This document shows positions 3,096 through 11,252 of a stretch of DNA of 35,414 nucleotides, in pieces. Below the pieces are notes generated by a model, which saw nothing but the letters and a program-made list of their open reading frames with translations, did no database searches and had not been told where the DNA came from. Numbering within the stretch: position 1 is the first letter of the stretch; every line of letters begins with the position of its first letter. The position numbers and the translations under genes were made by a program. This DNA comes from an uncultured Bacteroidia bacterium (GTDB taxonomy: Bacteria > Bacteroidota > Bacteroidia > Bacteroidales > F082), in contig CACXQV010000051.1 of NCBI GenBank assembly GCA_902769875.1, forward strand, positions 1-35,414. The letters are read 5' to 3'.

Positions 3096-4649
3096 TCATT
3101 TCACTATCACTTTCTGTATCAATCTGTTACCATTCCAACGGATGGACACGAAATACACGCCCTTGGGGCATTCGCCCAAATCAAGTTGGGTTTCATGTCC
3201 GACAACGCTGCCGCGCATCACCGCTTGACCTGAAATGTCATACAATTCGTAATCAAACCTTTGCGCATCAGCGACGGTCAATGTGAGCCTTCCCGATGTC
3301 GGGTTGGGATAGGCCGCAAAACTTGCCCCGCATTCATCAACGCCTTCCACATGATTCATCACCACATGAATCTCGAAATCCACAAACTGGCCGTCGCTGG
3401 TGGCACGCATGACGAGATCGGCCTCGGCTTGCTCTTCCACCAAACGGCTCAACACCAATATTTTGCCATCCATTTCAACAGAAAGGGCGGTTTCATTCGA
3501 ATTGGAAACGATGCCGTAAGTGATGCCTTCGTCGGGGTCGTCGGGGTCGGAAGCCACGCCATCAAGATTGACTTGGAGGGTTTGCGGAAACTCATCGAAA
3601 ACCAACTCCGTCACGGGATTGAGAATGAAAGGCGGCTCGTCGACAACCTGATGCATTATGACGTGCACGATGAAATCGACCGACTGGCCATCGCTGGTGG
3701 CACGCAACACAAGGTCGACCGTGGCTTCGTTCGCTGTTTGGCGGAACAGGTTCAAAATCCTGTTGTTGACTTGAGCCAACAACGCCGAAGGATTCGGATT
3801 GGAAACCACGCTGTAGGCAATCTGCTCATCGGGGTCGTCGGGGTCGGTGGCCACGCCATCAAGGTTGACTTGGAGGGTTTGCGGATATTCGTCAAAGACC
3901 ACATCCTGAACGGGATTGACGACATACGGCGGCAAGTCGGGAGCCGCGCCGCCCCCGTTGAAGTTGTCCATGCAGAAATAGGCCGGCGTAATCATGTTGT
4001 AGCCACTGCCTCTTGATGACGAAAGGCTAAAGGAAATGGTGGCCACATTACCCAAGGGGCTGAGATCGAACCACTCCCAAGTATTTAGGACATAGTCTTC
4101 ATCATTGTTGGCAAAGCGAAAGTCGGCGAGGTAGAAATCCAATGTACCCACGGTTTGTCCACTGGCATTCTTACCTGTCGCTGTCACCTTGAACCAGTCA
4201 GGGTCGTTGCCTGAAGGTCCTCCGTAGGGTGGCTCGCCATACCCACCTTGAAGAATGTCTTGATAAGTCCACAGATTGTTGGTGACATAGCAGCCTGTTA
4301 CGGTATGTGATTGCCCATCGGCGGCATAGACATCCGTCTGCACACCCATGGTATAGGCCACGGCATATTGGGTAGAGCCATCGTATCCGCAGCCGGTGGC
4401 AGCCGTGTATTGGGCATTCAGGCCCGTCTGGCTCAGGTCGGTGCGGTTGGAGGCCGTGAAGCCGCCCCAATAGCCGTATTGGGTAGAATTGGTAAAGAGC
4501 CAGCCGCCGCTGGACATCTCATTCTCGCCGACAGGGGGCTGCCAAATGCCGTTGCTTCCGAGTTGCACATCTTCAAAAGTGGCAGGTTCTTGCGCGAAGG
4601 CGAAGTTAGCCACAAAAAGCGAAAGGAAAAGGAAAAGATTTTTCCGCAT
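3096..4649 (-). CDS. Secreted DUF4465 (BtuH-like) protein with T9SS sorting domain
   Basis: 517 residues. Residues 1-19 are a signal peptide ending in AFA-Q. Residues about 21-232 match the DUF4465 pattern (ATFEDV near the start, GWLFTNSTQYGYWGGF, later DWFKVTATGKN and TWEWFDLSPLGNV, ending YFCMDNFNGG). Two tandem repeats of roughly 95 residues follow (about 236-330 and 332-425), sharing VFDEYPQTLQVNLDGVATDPDDPDE and VLRATSDGQ-type blocks, and look like Ig/cadherin-type spacers. The last 80 residues (AAYPNPTSGRLTL ... GVYFVSI ... QKVIVK) are a type IX secretion C-terminal sorting domain. DUF4465 proteins in gut Bacteroidetes include surface B12-binding proteins (BtuH). The cobalamin riboswitch directly upstream supports a role in corrinoid capture. 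Here surface delivery appears to be by T9SS rather than as a lipoprotein. Binding itself is inferred. Confidence 0.9.
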   Translation of the reverse strand: MRKNLFLFLSLFVANFAFAQEPATFEDVQLGSNGIWQPPVGENEMSSGGWLFTNSTQYGYWGGFTASNRTDLSQTGLNAQYTAATGCGYDGSTQYAVAYTMGVQTDVYAADGQSHTVTGCYVTNNLWTYQDILQGGYGEPPYGGPSGNDPDWFKVTATGKNASGQTVGTLDFYLADFRFANNDEDYVLNTWEWFDLSPLGNVATISFSLSSSRGSGYNMITPAYFCMDNFNGGGAAPDLPPYVVNPVQDVVFDEYPQTLQVNLDGVATDPDDPDEQIAYSVVSNPNPSALLAQVNNRILNLFRQTANEATVDLVLRATSDGQSVDFIVHVIMHQVVDEPPFILNPVTELVFDEFPQTLQVNLDGVASDPDDPDEGITYGIVSNSNETALSVEMDGKILVLSRLVEEQAEADLVMRATSDGQFVDFEIHVVMNHVEGVDECGASFAAYPNPTSGRLTLTVADAQRFDYELYDISGQAVMRGSVVGHETQLDLGECPKGVYFVSIRWNGNRLIQKVIVK

Positions 4650-4761
4650 AACTTATTGGTTATTAAACATTAAATAATAATGCAAGACCATCGCAAGCAG
4701 CTATGCCAATTGCCACGCTTAGCGTCGCCCTTGTTCCCGAAGGCTTGCAAAGAATTACCTT

Positions 4762-4905
4762 GTTTGGCAGGTCTTCTGACTTGCCCGAGCCTGTCGCCTT
4801 CCCATACGGATGGGCCGTACAGTGGCTTTTTCTTGACAGGCCTTACACGGGCTCACAGCAGCGGGCACTGTTGCCGATTTGCACGGCATTCCCTTAACCA
4901 AATCG
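4762..4905 (-). promoter_or_regulatory. Cobalamin (B12) riboswitch upstream of the DUF4465 gene
   Basis: Read on the minus strand the region carries the hallmark blocks in order: GGGAA near the 5' end, AAATCGGCAACAGTGCCCGC, GCTGTGA, CCACTG, GGGAAGGCGACAGGC, and AGTCAGAAGACCTGCC (complement of 4766-4781). This is the class with a full P7-P10 core. The aptamer ends 117 bases before the ATG. B12 riboswitches of this class normally reduce expression when cobalamin is bound, so the DUF4465 protein should rise when B12 is scarce. Confidence 0.93.
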
Positions 4906-4909
4906 GGCG

Positions 4910-4917
4910 CAAAGGTA
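4910..4917 (-). promoter_or_regulatory. -7 promoter box for the DUF4465 riboswitch transcript
   Basis: Reads TACCTTTG on the minus strand, an exact TAnnTTTG match, a few bases before the riboswitch 5' end. TTTGG sequences about 25-30 bases further upstream could serve as the -33 element. Confidence 0.6.
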
Positions 4918-4995
4918 AGGCATTTTTCCGAAATGGCAATTGCCAAAGCCAAAACATTATTTCGGGGTGATAGGCAAGCGTACAGAAATATTCCC

Positions 4996-5003
4996 TATTT
5001 TTG
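4996..5003 (+). promoter_or_regulatory. -7 promoter box for the CoA-transferase riboswitch transcript
   Basis: TATTTTTG, an exact TAnnTTTG match about 10 bases before the plus-strand riboswitch. With the minus-strand box at 4910-4917 it forms a compact divergent promoter pair. Confidence 0.6.
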
Positions 5004-5011
5004 CCGCCGAT

Positions 5012-5185
5012 TTGTGGTGTCCCTTGCGGACTCAATAGGGAATCGGGTGAAAGTCCCGTACAGTTCCCGCTGCTGTGATGGCCAATCGCCTGCCACTGTG
5101 CCACTGAAAGCCTTGTCTTTCGGGAAGGCGGCAGAAGCGAGGCCTCAGTCAGAAGACCTGCCTCAAGTCGCGAAACAAGGCTTCC
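5012..5185 (+). promoter_or_regulatory. Cobalamin (B12) riboswitch upstream of the CoA-transferase gene
   Basis: Plus strand holds GGGAATCGGGTGAAAGTCCC, then ACAGTTCCCGCTGCTGTGA, GCCACTG, GGGAAGGCGGCAGAAGCGAG and CAGTCAGAAGACCTGCC (ending near 5162), the standard order of the cobalamin aptamer core. Only about 47 bases separate the AGACCTGCC block from the ATG at 5209. No U-tract terminator is visible there, so control probably acts on ribosome access. A longer open frame that begins at 4879 runs straight through the aptamer and is not the real start. Confidence 0.93.
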
Positions 5186-5208
5186 GGGAATTGAAGTTAT
5201 TAAGTAAT

Positions 5209-6525
5209 ATGAAGAAACAATATCAACCAGTCACGGCTGAAGAAGCCGTCAAAGTCATCAAGTCGGGCGACCACGTCCACATCAGTTCGGTGTCGAATGT
5301 GCCGCAATGTTTGGTCAAGGCTATGTGCGACAGAGGTCGCGCGGGCGAGTTGAAGAATGTCTATATCCATCACCTTCACACCGAGGGCGCCGCGCCCTAC
5401 GTCAACCCTGAATTCGAGGGCATTTTCCAGCACAATGCCTTCTTCGTGGGTGCCAACGTGCGCGAAAGCGTCCAAAAAGGCTTGGCCGACTACATTCCCG
5501 TTTTCCTCGGCGAGACCTCGAAACTTTATCGCGAGCGTTACATCAAATGCAACGTGGCGATGATTCAGGTTGGCCCTCCCGACAAGTTCGGCTATGTGTC
5601 GCTCGGTTCGTCGGTCGATGCCACTTTGGCCGCAATGGAGAGTGCCGAGTTTGTCATTGCAGTGGTCAACAAGCACGTTCCGCGCACCTTCGGCGATGCT
5701 TTGGTTCATATTAGCAGAATCAATGTTTTTGTTGAGGACGATTCACCATTGCTCACCGTCGATATGCCCGAGCCAAACGAGGTGGAAAAAACCATCGGGC
5801 GTTATTGTGCCGAACTCATCGAAGACGGTGCCTGCCTCCAGATGGGTATCGGTTCCATACCCAACGCCATCCTTTCGTGCCTCCACAACCACAAAAACAT
5901 CGGCATCCATACCGAGATGTTCTCCGACGGCATTTTGCCGCTTGTCAAGAAAGGCGTCATCACTGGCGACAACAAGAAACTCAACAAAGGAAAAATCGTA
6001 TCCACCTTCGTGATGGGCTCGAAGAAAATCTATGACTTCATCAACGGCAACCACGAGGTGCTGCTGATGGACGTGGAATACACCAACGATCCCTTCATCA
6101 TTGCACAGCAACCCAAGATGACTTCCATCAACTCGGGCATCCAGATTGACCTGTCGGGACAGGTGTGCGCCGACTCGTTGGGCGAGCGCATCTATTCAGG
6201 TGTTGGCGGCCAAATTGACTACGTCTATGGCTCGTCGCGCTCGAAGGGCGGCAAGGCCATCATCGCAATGCCCTCCACCACGCGCAAAGGCATCAACAAG
6301 ATTGTGCCTGCCTTGGACTTGGGCTCGGGTGCCGTCACCACGCGCAACCATATCCACTGGTTCGTCACGGAATATGGCGCGGTGAATCTCTACGGACGCT
6401 CGCTTCAGGAAAGGGCAAAACTCATCATTTCGGTGGCGCATCCGCAGTTCCAAGAACAGTTGGACGAGGCCGCGTTCAAGAGGTTTGGGCCGCATTTCCA
6501 TTACCTTTGGAACAATATTGTTTGA
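5209..6525 (+). CDS. Acetyl-CoA hydrolase / 4-hydroxybutyrate-type CoA-transferase
   Basis: 438 residues starting MKKQYQPVTAEEAV. The family is the AbfT/Cat1 group, which moves CoA between acyl-CoA and a carboxylate such as acetate, butyrate, 4-hydroxybutyrate, propionate or succinate. Visible marks are the N-terminal HISSVSN block, LQMGIGSIPNA near 210-220, the catalytic Glu at about 236 in GIHTEMFSDG, the GVGGQIDY loop at 331-338, and the C-terminal TEYGAVNLYGRS segment. Length is normal for the family. The ATG at 5209 is chosen because everything upstream is riboswitch. No partner gene is adjacent downstream; the next gene is MarC. The exact acyl substrate cannot be read from sequence. Control by B12 suggests a link to the methylmalonyl-CoA (propionate) route or to an alternative used when that route is starved of cofactor. 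Confidence 0.93.
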   Translation: MKKQYQPVTAEEAVKVIKSGDHVHISSVSNVPQCLVKAMCDRGRAGELKNVYIHHLHTEGAAPYVNPEFEGIFQHNAFFVGANVRESVQKGLADYIPVFLGETSKLYRERYIKCNVAMIQVGPPDKFGYVSLGSSVDATLAAMESAEFVIAVVNKHVPRTFGDALVHISRINVFVEDDSPLLTVDMPEPNEVEKTIGRYCAELIEDGACLQMGIGSIPNAILSCLHNHKNIGIHTEMFSDGILPLVKKGVITGDNKKLNKGKIVSTFVMGSKKIYDFINGNHEVLLMDVEYTNDPFIIAQQPKMTSINSGIQIDLSGQVCADSLGERIYSGVGGQIDYVYGSSRSKGGKAIIAMPSTTRKGINKIVPALDLGSGAVTTRNHIHWFVTEYGAVNLYGRSLQERAKLIISVAHPQFQEQLDEAAFKRFGPHFHYLWNNIV

Positions 6526-6532
6526 TTGATTT

Positions 6533-6644
6533 AACTACGAATTACACAAATATTACTAATTTTGCACGAATATTCGTATGGATCCGCAGCCGTGGCTGCA
6601 TAATTCCGTAGCATACATTCGTTCAATTAGTGAAATTCGTAGTT
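6533..6644. repeat. MITE-like intergenic element, copy 1 (112 bp)
   Basis: Bounded by perfect 11-bp terminal inverted repeats AACTACGAATT (6533-6543) and AATTCGTAGTT (6634-6644), with an internal small hairpin around CGCAGCCGTGGCTGC (about 6585-6600). Copies 2 and 3 lie in the queuosine gene region at 18924-19087 and 20224-20304. The right half of copy 1 aligns with the right half of copy 2. It contains the likely marC promoter. Confidence 0.8.
6557..6564 (+). promoter_or_regulatory. -7 promoter box for marC, inside the MITE-like element
   Basis: TAATTTTG followed by CACGAATATT. The same 20-base string starting ACTAATTTTGCACGAATATT also occurs at the EamA gene promoter (12732-12751), which suggests a shared or copied promoter. 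Confidence 0.5.
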
Positions 6645-6665
6645 CTTTTTCTAAACTCAAATCCA

Positions 6666-7262
6666 ATGTTCGGTAGCATCAACTTCGTGGAAATCTTCGG
6701 CGCGTTCATCGTGATGGCCGCCATCATCGACATCTTCGGCTCCATTCCCATTTTCGTGGGTATGAAGGCGCAAAACAAGACCATCAAGGCGGGACAGGCC
6801 TGTCTGACGGCCTTGGGACTGTTTTTGGCGTTCTTCTTCGCCGGCGACGCGCTGCTCAAGCTCTTTGGCATCGATGTGGCTTCGTTTGCCGTGGCGGGTT
6901 CGTTCGTGCTGTTCATCCTCGCCGTCGAGATGATTCTCGGTCGCGAAATCATCAAGAACGAGGGCGGCAAGGGCGGCGCGAGCATCGTGCCCATCGCCTT
7001 CCCGTTGATTGCCGGTCCAGGCGCGCTGACAGCCTTGCTCTCGCTCCGCGCCGACTACGCCGTCATCAACATCATCATCGCGCTGTTGCTCAACATCTTG
7101 TTGGACTACATCGTCATCAGCCAGCTCGACCGCATCCAGAAACTCTTGGGCGAAAACCTGATTTTCATCCTCCGCAAGTTCTTCGGCGTCATCCTCTTGG
7201 CCATCGCCGTGAATATGTTCGTCAATAATATTTCGGTGATTATCGGGAATGTGGCGAGATAG
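6666..7262 (+). CDS. MarC family integral membrane protein
   Basis: 198 residues from MFGSINFVEIFGAFIVM. About six membrane segments are visible with the MarC family pattern: a first helix running into DIFGSIPIFVGM, then polar-break motifs, PIAFPLIAGPGALTALL in the fourth helix and a final FFGVILLAIAVNMFVNNI helix. The family lies in the inner membrane; its substrate is not established and the old multiple-antibiotic-resistance link is not supported by later work. An ATG 12 codons upstream is possible, but the family begins close to the internal Met and the upstream part overlaps the right terminal repeat of the MITE-like element, so 6666 is preferred. The gene stands alone, with the R-M locus promoter directly after it. 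Confidence 0.9.
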   Translation: MFGSINFVEIFGAFIVMAAIIDIFGSIPIFVGMKAQNKTIKAGQACLTALGLFLAFFFAGDALLKLFGIDVASFAVAGSFVLFILAVEMILGREIIKNEGGKGGASIVPIAFPLIAGPGALTALLSLRADYAVINIIIALLLNILLDYIVISQLDRIQKLLGENLIFILRKFFGVILLAIAVNMFVNNISVIIGNVAR

Positions 7263-7301: not shown

Positions 7302-8606
7302 ATGAGTTCAAAAACGCCAAAACTAAAATTCATAGATTTGTTCGCGGGTATTGGAGGTATCAGAAAAGGGTTTGAAATGGCCTGTTATGATAGTGGAATC
7401 CAAGCTGAATGTGTGTTTACGTCAGAAATAAAACCGGCCGCCATAAAGGTTCTATTGCAAAACAATCCCAAAGACACTGTAAATGGGGATATATGCACAA
7501 TTGAATCGTCACAAATACCAGAATTTGATATTCTTCTTGCTGGTTTTCCTTGTCAAGCTTTTTCTTATGCGGGGAAACGTTTGGGGTTTATGGACACACG
7601 AGGTACGCTATTCTTTGAGGTTGAACGCATTTTGAAAGATCATAAGCCCAAAGGGTTCATATTAGAAAATGTGGAGGGATTGGTCAGCCACGATAAGACA
7701 GATAAAACCAAACCAATTGGCAGAACTTTGGAAACCATTTTACAACACCTTAAAGACATAGGATACAAAGTTGATTGGCGATTGCTTAATTCAAAAGATT
7801 TTGGGATAGCTCAAGACAGGAAACGTATTTACATTGTTGGATCATTAACGGACAGCATTTCGCTTGATGGTTTTGAAATCAAACATACAAAACTATATGA
7901 AGTATTGGAACAAGGATTGCCAACATCAAATTCTCCTTTTGTCAAGAATGTACTATCACATTTTGCCGTTGAACAACTTGCAGGAAAATCAATAAAAGAT
8001 AAAAGAGGCGGAGACAATAACATCCATTCGTGGGATTTGGAGTTGAAAGGAACCGTATCACAAGAACAAAAACATTTGTTAAACAAGCTTTTTAAAGAAC
8101 GAAGGAAAAAGCATTGGGCAATAGAAAACGGGATAGATTGGATGGACGGAATGGCACTATCCTTGAAACAAATCCAAACGTTTTTCGATTCTCCTGATTT
8201 GAAGGAAATATTGGAGGATCTTGTCATAAAGGGTTATTTAAAAAAAGAATACCCAAAACGCCTAACAACCGATTTATTCGGGAATACGTTTAGGCAGCAG
8301 GATCCCTCTCTTCCTGTAGGCTATAACATAGTTGCAGGAAAAATGAGTTATGAAGTGGCAAAAATTCTTGACCCCAATGATGTTGCGCCTACTTTGGTCG
8401 CAATGGATATGGAAAGGCTATATGTCATTGATGGCAGCGGATTAAGACCATTAACTTTACGTGAGGGATTGAGATTGTTTGGTTACCCTGAAGATTTTAA
8501 ATTTGACATTGACACCAAAGATGGTTATGACTTGCTGGGCAACACTGTTGCTGTTCCCGTAATAAAACAAGTTGCATTAAGATTACTGAATAAAATCAAT
8601 CAATAA
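7302..8606 (+). CDS. DNA (cytosine-5-)-methyltransferase of a type II R-M system
   Basis: 434 residues with the ordered m5C-methyltransferase motifs: SAM-binding motif I FIDLFAGIGGIRKGFE (10-25), motif IV GFPCQAFSYAG with catalytic Cys at about 84, motif VI ENVEGL (122-127), motif VIII QDRKRIYIVG (171-180), a variable target-recognition region (about 230-370), then motifs IX-X LTLREGLRLFGYPEDF and LLGNTVAVPVI. It methylates cytosine in the recognition site so that the cognate endonuclease does not cut host DNA. The endonuclease gene starts 8 bases after its stop. Base composition is clearly more AT-rich than MarC and the permease on either side, as expected for a transferred defence locus. 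Confidence 0.95.
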   Translation: MSSKTPKLKFIDLFAGIGGIRKGFEMACYDSGIQAECVFTSEIKPAAIKVLLQNNPKDTVNGDICTIESSQIPEFDILLAGFPCQAFSYAGKRLGFMDTRGTLFFEVERILKDHKPKGFILENVEGLVSHDKTDKTKPIGRTLETILQHLKDIGYKVDWRLLNSKDFGIAQDRKRIYIVGSLTDSISLDGFEIKHTKLYEVLEQGLPTSNSPFVKNVLSHFAVEQLAGKSIKDKRGGDNNIHSWDLELKGTVSQEQKHLLNKLFKERRKKHWAIENGIDWMDGMALSLKQIQTFFDSPDLKEILEDLVIKGYLKKEYPKRLTTDLFGNTFRQQDPSLPVGYNIVAGKMSYEVAKILDPNDVAPTLVAMDMERLYVIDGSGLRPLTLREGLRLFGYPEDFKFDIDTKDGYDLLGNTVAVPVIKQVALRLLNKINQ

Positions 8607-8614
8607 TAAACGCT

Positions 8615-9328
8615 ATGAAATTAACAGCTGATGAGATATTCAATTCATTAAAAAATGAGTTCCACTTCGAAAGCGCAACAGGAAGAATAACATTCAACCT
8701 GCGAGACTACTCAATCGTTGTCGAACAGAATAATGTTGTAGGCAACATCTTGGAGGAATGGCTCGCCAAATGGTTCAACAGCAATGGTTACGAAAATATA
8801 CATAACTTAAAACAGGATGCTCCCGATTTTTGGCTCAACCCAGACAACTTGGAATCCGAGTGGCTCGAAATCAAGTCGTTTACTGGAAGTCCTAATTTTG
8901 ACATTGCAAATTTCCGTTCTTACATCAATGAGATTATTGAAAAACCATATAAACTCCATTCAAAGTATTTACTTATCAAATATAAAGCAGAAAAAGGCAT
9001 TGTTACCATAGAAGACTTTTGGTTGAAGAATGTTTGGGAAATCAGTTGCCCTAGTAGTGGATGGCCTGTGAAAGTTCAGGTCAAGCGTGGAATTATTTAT
9101 AATTTGCGTCCGTCTATATGGTATTCAGACGACACCAGCTATCCATCATTTAAAAGTTTGGAGCATTTTCTTGCGGCAATAGAACAGACTATGTATCGTT
9201 ATCACGACACAAATGTCTTGGCAGAAACTTGGTTGGATAAAATGAAAAAGTCATACAAGAAACACTATGGAATTGAATTGGATATTCCAAGATGGTTCGA
9301 CATAAAAACTGAATATGGCATTGTGTAA
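8615..9328 (+). CDS. Type II restriction endonuclease, possibly NgoBV/NlaIV-like
   Basis: 237 residues directly following the methyltransferase. A PD-(D/E)XK core is visible: a helix with GNILEEWL (43-50), then APDFW with Asp at about 71, and EWLEIKSF with Glu 85 and Lys 87. The remainder, including the [11 protein letters not shown] and YLLIKY strands and a C-terminal basic helix [11 protein letters not shown], is consistent with a small monodomain enzyme. Size, gene order and partner type resemble R-M pairs of the NgoBV/NlaIV group (site GGNNCC), but that assignment comes from memory of the family and is not proven here. Its role is to cleave unmethylated incoming DNA. Confidence 0.8.
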
Positions 9329-10865: not shown

Positions 10866-11252
10866 ACAGCGACCCAAGCGAATAAGCGGGATTCTGTTCC
10901 CCTTGCGGGGCGACCGTCATTTCTCTCGGCCTGCGGTCGCCCGCAGGCTCAAGCGCCCTACCCTGAGACGACGGACGAGCAGCCCGTTCAAGGCCCGAAA
11001 GCCTCATTGCCTCTATACTTGGACTTGCAGCCCATAAGGTTTGCCCCGGCGGAATGTCGCCACCCGCCGCGTGAGCCCTTACCTCACGTTTTCACCCTTA
11101 CCCTTGCGGGCGGTATATTTTTCTGTGGCACTGTCTGTTACACTCGCGTGTACCTTCCTGTTAAGAAGTATGGTGCTCTGTGCTGTCCCGACTTTCCTCG
11201 CGCCGGCTTTCCCGACCGGCTTTCCCGACCCGCGACAGTCTGCCTGAATCGC
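10866..11252 (-). ncRNA. rnpB: RNase P RNA (rnpB), bacterial type A
   Basis: On the minus strand the diagnostic RNase P blocks appear in order: GCGAGGAAAGTCGGGACAGC near the 5' side, CCGCAAGGGTAAGGGTGAAA, GTGAGGTAAGGGCTCACGCG, GGTGGCGACATTCC, GGGCAAACCTTATGGGC, and close to the 3' end GGGAACAGAATCCCGCTTAT. This is the catalytic RNA that trims 5' leaders from pre-tRNAs. Ends are placed from the TAnnTTTG promoter box on one side and the terminator on the other, so are good to about 10 bases. A perfect 13-bp tandem duplication (unit CGGCTTTCCCGAC on the plus strand) lies at 11204-11229, near the P3 helix. Confidence 0.95.

What the first reader, a model, noticed from the sequence alone, without database searches (positions are those of the whole stretch)
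5012..6525. CoA-transferase under B12 riboswitch control: possible metabolic switch
The gene behind the plus-strand riboswitch is an AbfT/Cat1-type CoA-transferase with a catalytic Glu at about 236, not a transport or cobalamin-synthesis gene. Class behaviour predicts expression when B12 is low. Propionate formation through methylmalonyl-CoA mutase needs B12, so this enzyme could run an alternative acyl-CoA disposal (for example acetate or butyrate) when that route stalls. That logic is inference; the substrate is unknown.
Basis: partly seen in the sequence, partly recalled or inferred. Interest (0 to 1): 0.7.

Follow-up and report, generated by a model that had tools for sequence, protein, structure and literature searches.

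The report
B12-riboswitch-controlled CoA-transferase in rumen Bacteroidales
A rumen-type bacterium places an enzyme that probably releases short-chain fatty acids from CoA under a vitamin-B12-sensing RNA switch; its close relatives kept this control while rearranging what lies around the gene, which suggests that B12 supply helps to set how they ferment.

Summary
A cobalamin riboswitch (4998-5179 +, 105 bits) lies 29 nt before an AbfT-type CoA-transferase (5209-6525, 438 aa, Glu236). A second, divergent riboswitch precedes a DUF4465 (B12-binding family) surface protein. In the window and 70 close homologues the control is conserved: 66 of 71 have a riboswitch upstream on the same strand; contig ends cut the other 5. 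Arrangements differ: directly adjacent (45), tightly coupled behind another gene, 15 of 16 of DUF4465 clusters (16), behind other surface genes (5). Ten homologues at 71-73% identity have none in the 1.3-6 kb held. Sharing operons with B12-capture genes argues for an OFF switch. Elsewhere in the order, riboswitches also precede a 4-hydroxybutyryl-CoA-dehydratase/AbfT butyrate operon (5 of 7 testable in one survey); one Tannerella case was already in print, read differently. So the 'metabolic switch' idea gains comparative support. The window enzyme is not that operon's AbfT, and its substrate is unknown. Best reading: an acyl-CoA:acetate CoA-transferase made when B12 is scarce, a B12-independent exit while methylmalonyl-CoA mutase stalls. 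The regulatory link is well supported; polarity and metabolic role are inference.

The parts
4998..5179 (+). Cobalamin riboswitch aptamer (RF00174) upstream of the CoA-transferase
   Evidence: 105.4 bits, E 1.3e-25, model 1-189/189; own model R1, 154.7 bits (the window was in the model's training set)
5180..5208 (+). Short leader between aptamer and start codon; translational control inferred from its length
   Evidence: 5175-5183 is complementary over 9 nt to 5108-5116 in the P5 loop, but relatives L012 and L027 do not keep this match: inconclusive. Terminators were looked for only in leaders over 60 nt
5209..6525 (+). AbfT-type CoA-transferase, 438 aa, Glu236
4749..4917 (-). Second, divergent cobalamin riboswitch aptamer
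   Evidence: 89.9 bits, E 3.5e-21
3096..4649 (-). DUF4465 protein with a type IX secretion tail, 517 aa, behind the minus-strand riboswitch; probable surface B12-capture protein
   Evidence: PF14717 166 bits, PF18962 45.4 bits; function of DUF4465 from PMC13398666 (passages)
6630..7262 (+). MarC-family membrane protein, the usual downstream neighbour; co-transcription not shown
   Evidence: PF01914 104.5 bits; the next gene is of this cluster and strand in 49 of 70 loci that have a next ORF

Best explanation
The gene belongs to this lineage's B12-riboswitch regulon. The enzyme most likely moves CoA from a C3-C5 acyl-CoA (propionyl, butyryl or branched) to acetate, releasing the fatty acid. This gives a B12-independent exit that frees CoA while the adenosylcobalamin enzymes of the genus (methylmalonyl-CoA mutase, and in most near-complete genomes lysine 5,6-aminomutase) are idle. 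Shown by computation: riboswitch, gene, conserved linkage, change of surrounding parts, tight coupling to DUF4465-cluster genes. Inferred: OFF polarity, acetate as acceptor, acyl range, physiological purpose.
For: Riboswitch and gene. Linkage in 71 loci: 45 direct (window included) and 18 farther upstream with only same-strand genes between, by scan; L007 via L099, L006 and L008 by coordinates; 5 cut by contig ends. Homologues at 71-73% identity: 0 of 10. On quick gene trees the fewest changes are 8 for riboswitch subtype, assigned by nearest of four references, and 4 for arrangement. Gaps of -4 to +18 nt behind another gene in 16 loci, 15 of them of DUF4465 clusters c2 or c4. The third riboswitch of the own genome precedes a DUF4430/T9SS gene, a T9SS gene and a DUF5074 gene, which looks like uptake. 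AbfT-type P. gingivalis enzymes PGN_0725 and PGN_1888 are butyryl- and propionyl-CoA:acetate CoA-transferases (PMC4949257, passages). A separate clade, the AbfD-AbfT operon, has riboswitches too. MutB-class hit in 17 of 17 same-genus genomes at 90% completeness or more.
Against: No substrate evidence: the window enzyme is 45% identical to the AbfD-operon AbfT, sits in another clade and fails the butyryl-CoA:acetate equivalog cut-off (309.4 of 674.8). In L006, L007, L008 and L082 a terminator-like hairpin lies between the surface gene and the CoA-T, so those are weaker operons. The P5-loop/leader match is not kept in relatives. L075, which appears to be from a genome placed in the same genus (G006), has no riboswitch in 6 kb. 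The related rumen bacterium Xylanibacter makes propionate with B12 but has no riboswitch near propionate genes (PMC11575231, passages). No conserved neighbour names the substrate.
Confidence: 0.5

Rival explanations
1. Hitch-hiking: the locus is a B12-capture island, and the CoA-transferase came under riboswitches only because it sits among surface B12-binding genes; its regulation has no metabolic meaning.
For: Neighbours behind riboswitches are often DUF4465 or other T9SS surface genes. The window differs from L099 by a missing 6.0 kb (two surface genes) between riboswitch and CoA-T, so adjacency can arise by deletion.
Against: Control is found in all 66 testable loci although arrangement and subtype changed (fewest changes 4 and 8); 45 of 71 have a riboswitch directly on this gene; a separate clade of the same enzyme family has riboswitches beside a dehydratase gene, though I did not scan those loci for DUF4465.
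Confidence: 0.2
2. The enzyme is the propionyl-CoA:succinate CoA-transferase of the succinate pathway, needed with B12, and the riboswitch is ON or nearly constitutive.
For: It is the only PF13336 protein found in the own genome, and a Cat1-type enzyme was found in only 1 (G009) of 36 same-genus genomes.
Against: 5 of 17 same-genus genomes at 90% completeness or more have neither AbfT- nor Cat1-type gene but do have a MutB-class hit. Coupling to DUF4465 genes predicts OFF. PGN_0725 and PGN_1888 did not use succinyl-CoA with acetate.
Confidence: 0.12
3. It is a butyrate-specific exit: butyryl-CoA:acetate CoA-transferase standing in for the butyryl-CoA:acetoacetate enzyme of B12-dependent lysine fermentation when KamDE stalls.
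For: A KamE-ScoB-crotonase-HBD-acyl-CoA dehydrogenase cluster in G017; KamE-class hits in 15 of 17 same-genus genomes at 90% completeness or more.
Against: Kam does not separate genomes with the CoA-T (10 of 11) from those without (5 of 6); no Kam hit in the incomplete window genome.
Confidence: 0.15

Closest known systems
AbfT-type CoA-transferases (PF02550 + PF13336; solved examples 3gk7, 3eh7, 3d3u, 2oas)
   Same: Length, both domains, the loop with the catalytic Glu, near full-length alignment
   Different: In another clade than the AbfD-operon enzymes; 45% identical to one of them
Cobalamin riboswitch control of B12-independent isozymes (PMC3766115, passages)
   Same: Same RNA family; a non-uptake metabolic gene presumably made when B12 is low
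   Different: Not an isozyme of a B12 enzyme but a fermentation end-step enzyme; the terms CoA transferase and acetyl-CoA hydrolase do not occur in that paper's main text (supplements not seen)
4-hydroxybutyryl-CoA dehydratase gene with a cobalamin riboswitch (Tannerella case in PMC7160235, passage)
   Same: Riboswitch ahead of a unit that, in the loci I fetched, contains an AbfT-type CoA-T
   Different: Window genome has no dehydratase hit and its enzyme is in another clade. PMC7160235 files that gene under adenosylcobalamin biosynthesis
Riboswitch-controlled DUF4465 (BtuJ) B12-capture loci of B. theta (PMC13398666, PMC12751083, passages)
   Same: DUF4465 genes behind cobalamin riboswitches
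   Different: Here they carry T9SS tails and are linked to a CoA-transferase

Membership tests
RF00174 cobalamin riboswitch | Full-length covariance match above gathering score 31.5 | tested here: met
   105.4 bits, 1-189/189
RF00174 cobalamin riboswitch | Binds cobalamin and lowers expression | not testable with these tools
   Only indirect: coupling to DUF4465-cluster genes
RF00174 cobalamin riboswitch | P5 loop-leader kissing interaction (expected position recalled) | tested here: inconclusive
   9-nt match in window, not kept in L012 or L027
AbfT-type CoA-transferase | PF02550 N-terminal and PF13336 C-terminal domains over cut-off | tested here: met
   87 and 195.3 bits
AbfT-type CoA-transferase | Catalytic Glu in its loop | tested here: met
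   Glu236; aligned with the Glu of solved enzymes; catalytic role recalled
TIGR03948 butyryl-CoA:acetate CoA-transferase | Curated cut-off 674.8 bits | tested here: not met
   309.4 bits
TIGR03458 Cat1/YgfH succinate CoA-transferase | Curated cut-off 658.7 bits | tested here: not met
   104.7 bits
4-hydroxybutyrate CoA-transferase of the AbfD operon | Partner 4-hydroxybutyryl-CoA dehydratase in the genome | tested here: not met
   No PF11794 hit in G000, which is 82.6% complete
4-hydroxybutyrate CoA-transferase of the AbfD operon | Same clade | tested here: not met
   Tree of 124 rows, quick method
Acyl-CoA:acetate CoA-transferase (activity) | Activity on propionyl- or butyryl-CoA with acetate | not testable with these tools
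   needs assay

The most novel reading that the evidence does not exclude
Bacteroidales have more than once wired a fermentation exit to B12: cobalamin riboswitches sit separately on stand-alone AbfT-type CoA-transferases (rumen F082-type clade) and on the 4-hydroxybutyrate AbfD-AbfT operon, so that B12 supply switches the fate of succinyl-CoA and acyl-CoA between propionate (B12-dependent mutase) and butyrate or acetate-coupled release. One genome (G153) has both systems.
Probability: 0.4. Interest if true: 0.8.

Novelty: new variant of a known kind. Interest (0 to 1): 0.62.

Why it matters
Propionate matters for glucose formation and greenhouse-gas output in ruminants, and B12-dependent propionate formation is known in rumen Bacteroidales (PMC11575231, abstract and passages). 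A riboswitch that tunes an acid-releasing enzyme would be a direct genetic link from B12 supply to the acid profile, testable with a reporter and one purified enzyme. Riboswitch searches that expect only uptake, synthesis or isozymes may overlook such targets.

Tried and rejected
Rejected: a Cat1-type assignment; the 4-hydroxybutyrate pathway in the window genome (no hit); Kam lysine fermentation as the discriminating partner; gene context as a guide to the substrate (no conserved neighbour seen in the window's clade); the P5-loop/leader pairing as proof of an OFF platform. A first crude subtype count by regular expression gave 14 changes; I replaced it by assignment to the nearest of four chosen references, 8 changes; both depend on a quick tree of close sequences in which recombination is possible. 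The acyl-CoA dehydrogenase of the own genome (L109) sits beside a biotin carboxylase and was not taken as butyrate evidence. G038 carries an F082-like riboswitch and broken CoA-T, possibly transferred or contaminating; I did not count it as a further independent case. Paper searches that gave nothing further: two papers, seen as listings only; none; one search was seen as a listing only.

Limits: most genomes are metagenome bins; one search kept the best 80 of 153 relatives; one search's and 61's genomes are drawn evenly from a larger group; trees are quick searches and their counts of change cannot tell gain from loss. In some searches only about 2.7 kb upstream was held (less at contig ends; 3 of 99 loci had under 150 bp), so 11 of 99 is a lower bound. 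The 20 Cat1-type controls are the best-scoring ones listed. In one search, two fragments under 380 aa were dropped and 23 of the fetched F082-type, outgroup and other loci were chosen by hand; labels for L220 and L222 rest on L057 and L052. L008's contig was matched by its offset alone.

Full report
What is there. The window carries two divergent cobalamin riboswitches: 4998-5179 (+), 105.4 bits, and 4749-4917 (-), 89.9 bits. The plus one ends 29 nt before the ATG at 5209 of a 438-aa protein. It has the acetyl-CoA hydrolase/transferase domains PF02550 and PF13336, Glu236 in HTEMFSDG, and aligns over almost its whole length with solved enzymes named 4-hydroxybutyrate CoA-transferases. It misses the butyryl-CoA:acetate (309.4 against 674.8) and Cat1/YgfH (104.7 against 658.7) cut-offs. 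The minus riboswitch precedes a DUF4465 protein with a type IX secretion tail. DUF4465 is a B12-binding family (PMC13398666, passages).

Own genome. Three riboswitches were found. The third precedes a DUF4430/T9SS gene, another T9SS gene and a DUF5074 gene, which looks like uptake. So of the three units the CoA-transferase is the only one that does not look like capture. It is the only PF13336 match; the only PF02310 match is methylmalonyl-CoA mutase large subunit, beside the small subunit. The assembly is 82.6% complete, so absences are soft.

Conservation of the control. One search kept the best 80 of 153 homologues from named genome records. Seventy are 85-99% identical, from uncultured Bacteroidales, many with titles that name ruminants or rumen projects; one record is bacterium F082, hence 'F082-type'. 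With the window that is 71. My covariance model R1 and simple gene calls give a riboswitch upstream on the same strand in 63: 45 directly adjacent and 18 farther upstream with only same-strand genes between. L007 has one 6.0 kb upstream (seen in L099), and L006 and L008 likewise by coordinates, making 66. The remaining five (L011, L016, L019, L024, L054) end at a contig edge 0.5-4.1 kb upstream. The ten homologues at 71-73% identity have none in the 1.3-6 kb held (0 of 10). One of these, L075, appears to come from the same genome as G006, which the kinship table puts in the same genus, so the control is fixed in a clade, not in the whole genus.

The control was kept while its parts changed. 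Assigned to the nearest of four reference aptamers, the upstream riboswitches split 25, 16, 14 and 8 of 63, with at least 8 changes on the gene tree; arrangement changes at least 4 times. In 16 loci the preceding gene ends -4 to +18 nt from the CoA-transferase; 14 of these genes are of cluster c2, one of c4, one unclustered. A member of each of c2 and c4 has the DUF4465 domain. The window and L099, a near relative, share the riboswitch region (98.8% over window 4937-5196) and the gene with its downstream neighbour (95.4% over 5209-7261), but 6.0 kb with two surface genes lies between them in L099 only. Against this, L006, L007, L008 and L082 have a terminator-like hairpin just before the CoA-transferase, so control there may be partial.

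Polarity. It cannot be read from the leader. Coupling to DUF4465-cluster genes is the best argument for OFF: in B. theta most riboswitch-controlled B12-uptake proteins rise without cobalamin (PMC12751083, passages). Exceptions to OFF exist, such as the Listeria antisense case cited in PMC11575231 (passage).

A second, separate case. Only 1 of the 60 relatives (G012) has a PF11794 hit, but that one is striking: a riboswitch, then a protein matching 1u8v at 852 bits, then a 93-aa NifU-like ORF (my reading), an AbfT-type CoA-T, an Fe-alcohol dehydrogenase-like and an acylating aldehyde dehydrogenase-like gene. I read it as the succinyl-CoA-to-crotonyl-CoA route. Over 393 genomes of the order, 13 pass the PF11794 cut-off. 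Nine are AbfD-like by score (350-373 bits; one more of them checked against 1u8v, 790 bits). Five of these nine have RF00174 directly upstream, two do not, and two have under 200 bp upstream. The other four (262 bits, f82) have none. A Tannerella example is in print (PMC7160235, passage), labelled adenosylcobalamin biosynthesis. That route turns succinyl-CoA towards butyrate without B12 and so competes with the mutase (pathway knowledge; P. gingivalis enzymes in PMC4949257, passages).

Survey and tree. One search lists 102 AbfT-type places (187 bits or more). I fetched 99 (leaving out G000, G033 and G038): 11 have RF00174 upstream on the same strand within the about 2.7 kb held, namely five AbfD operons, one stand-alone gene in G392 (f80) and five of the window's clade. 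Of 20 Cat1-type controls, 0. In a tree of 124 rows the riboswitch-bearing genes form the window clade (23 rows, all positive, G038's fragment included) and part of the AbfD-type group with 3eh7; at least three changes of state. The window enzyme is 45% identical to an AbfD-operon AbfT. Genome G153 has both systems (its second place shares the contig length of L052, whose riboswitch is).

Function. AbfT-type P. gingivalis enzymes use butyryl-CoA and propionyl-CoA with acetate, not succinyl-CoA; no 4-hydroxybutyrate activity was found for PGN_0725 (PMC4949257, passages). By family I infer acyl-CoA:acetate transfer here. B12 use in the genus: hits of the MutB score class in 17 of 17 genomes at 90% completeness or more (named by NCBIfam only for the own genome); KamE-class hits in 15 of 17, one verified; no frame over 1000 aa (MetH length) listed for the genus, the longest being 812 aa in G025, while many other families show one. 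Six of these 17 lack an AbfT-type gene, one of the six having a Cat1-type instead, but have the MutB hit, so the enzyme is accessory and not the obligatory propionate step. An exit used when the mutase is idle fits best, but no flux or assay supports it yet.

Novelty. Cobalamin riboswitches on B12-independent isozymes are known (PMC3766115, passages). In Xylanibacter none lies near propionate genes (PMC11575231). My searches showed no paper that joins a cobalamin riboswitch to a CoA-transferase gene, within an open-licence library only and with the two papers unopened. I rate it a new variant of a known kind.

Noticed in passing
L098 (G038:C41), 5660-5837 and following gene: A genome placed in another family carries an F082-like riboswitch plus CoA-transferase whose frame is broken (pieces of about 262 and 213 aa); transfer of riboswitch and gene as a unit, or contamination.
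   Followed up: partly
window 7302-9328: DNA cytosine methyltransferase followed by an NgoBV-type restriction endonuclease: a type II restriction-modification pair just beyond the MarC gene.
   Followed up: no
window 10866-11251 (-): RNase P RNA class A, 237 bits.
   Followed up: no
L139 and L222 (G153): One 99%-complete genome has both the riboswitch-AbfD-AbfT operon and an F082-type CoA-transferase of the riboswitch-controlled clade.
   Followed up: partly
L148 1507-1697 (-) and 65-1369 (-) (G392): Stand-alone AbfT-type gene with its own cobalamin riboswitch about 140 nt upstream, in a genome that is not among the dehydratase matches.
   Followed up: partly
L018, L009, L015, L028 leaders: Long leaders (214-262 nt) with a strong hairpin plus T-run 27-31 nt before the start codon, possibly a relic of deleted c5/c12 genes or a transcriptional platform; the window has a short leader instead.
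   Followed up: partly
L096 6473-6760 (cluster c6): 95-aa membrane-like protein without a Pfam match, a recurrent neighbour of the CoA-T, for instance in L062-L065 and L070-L074.
   Followed up: no
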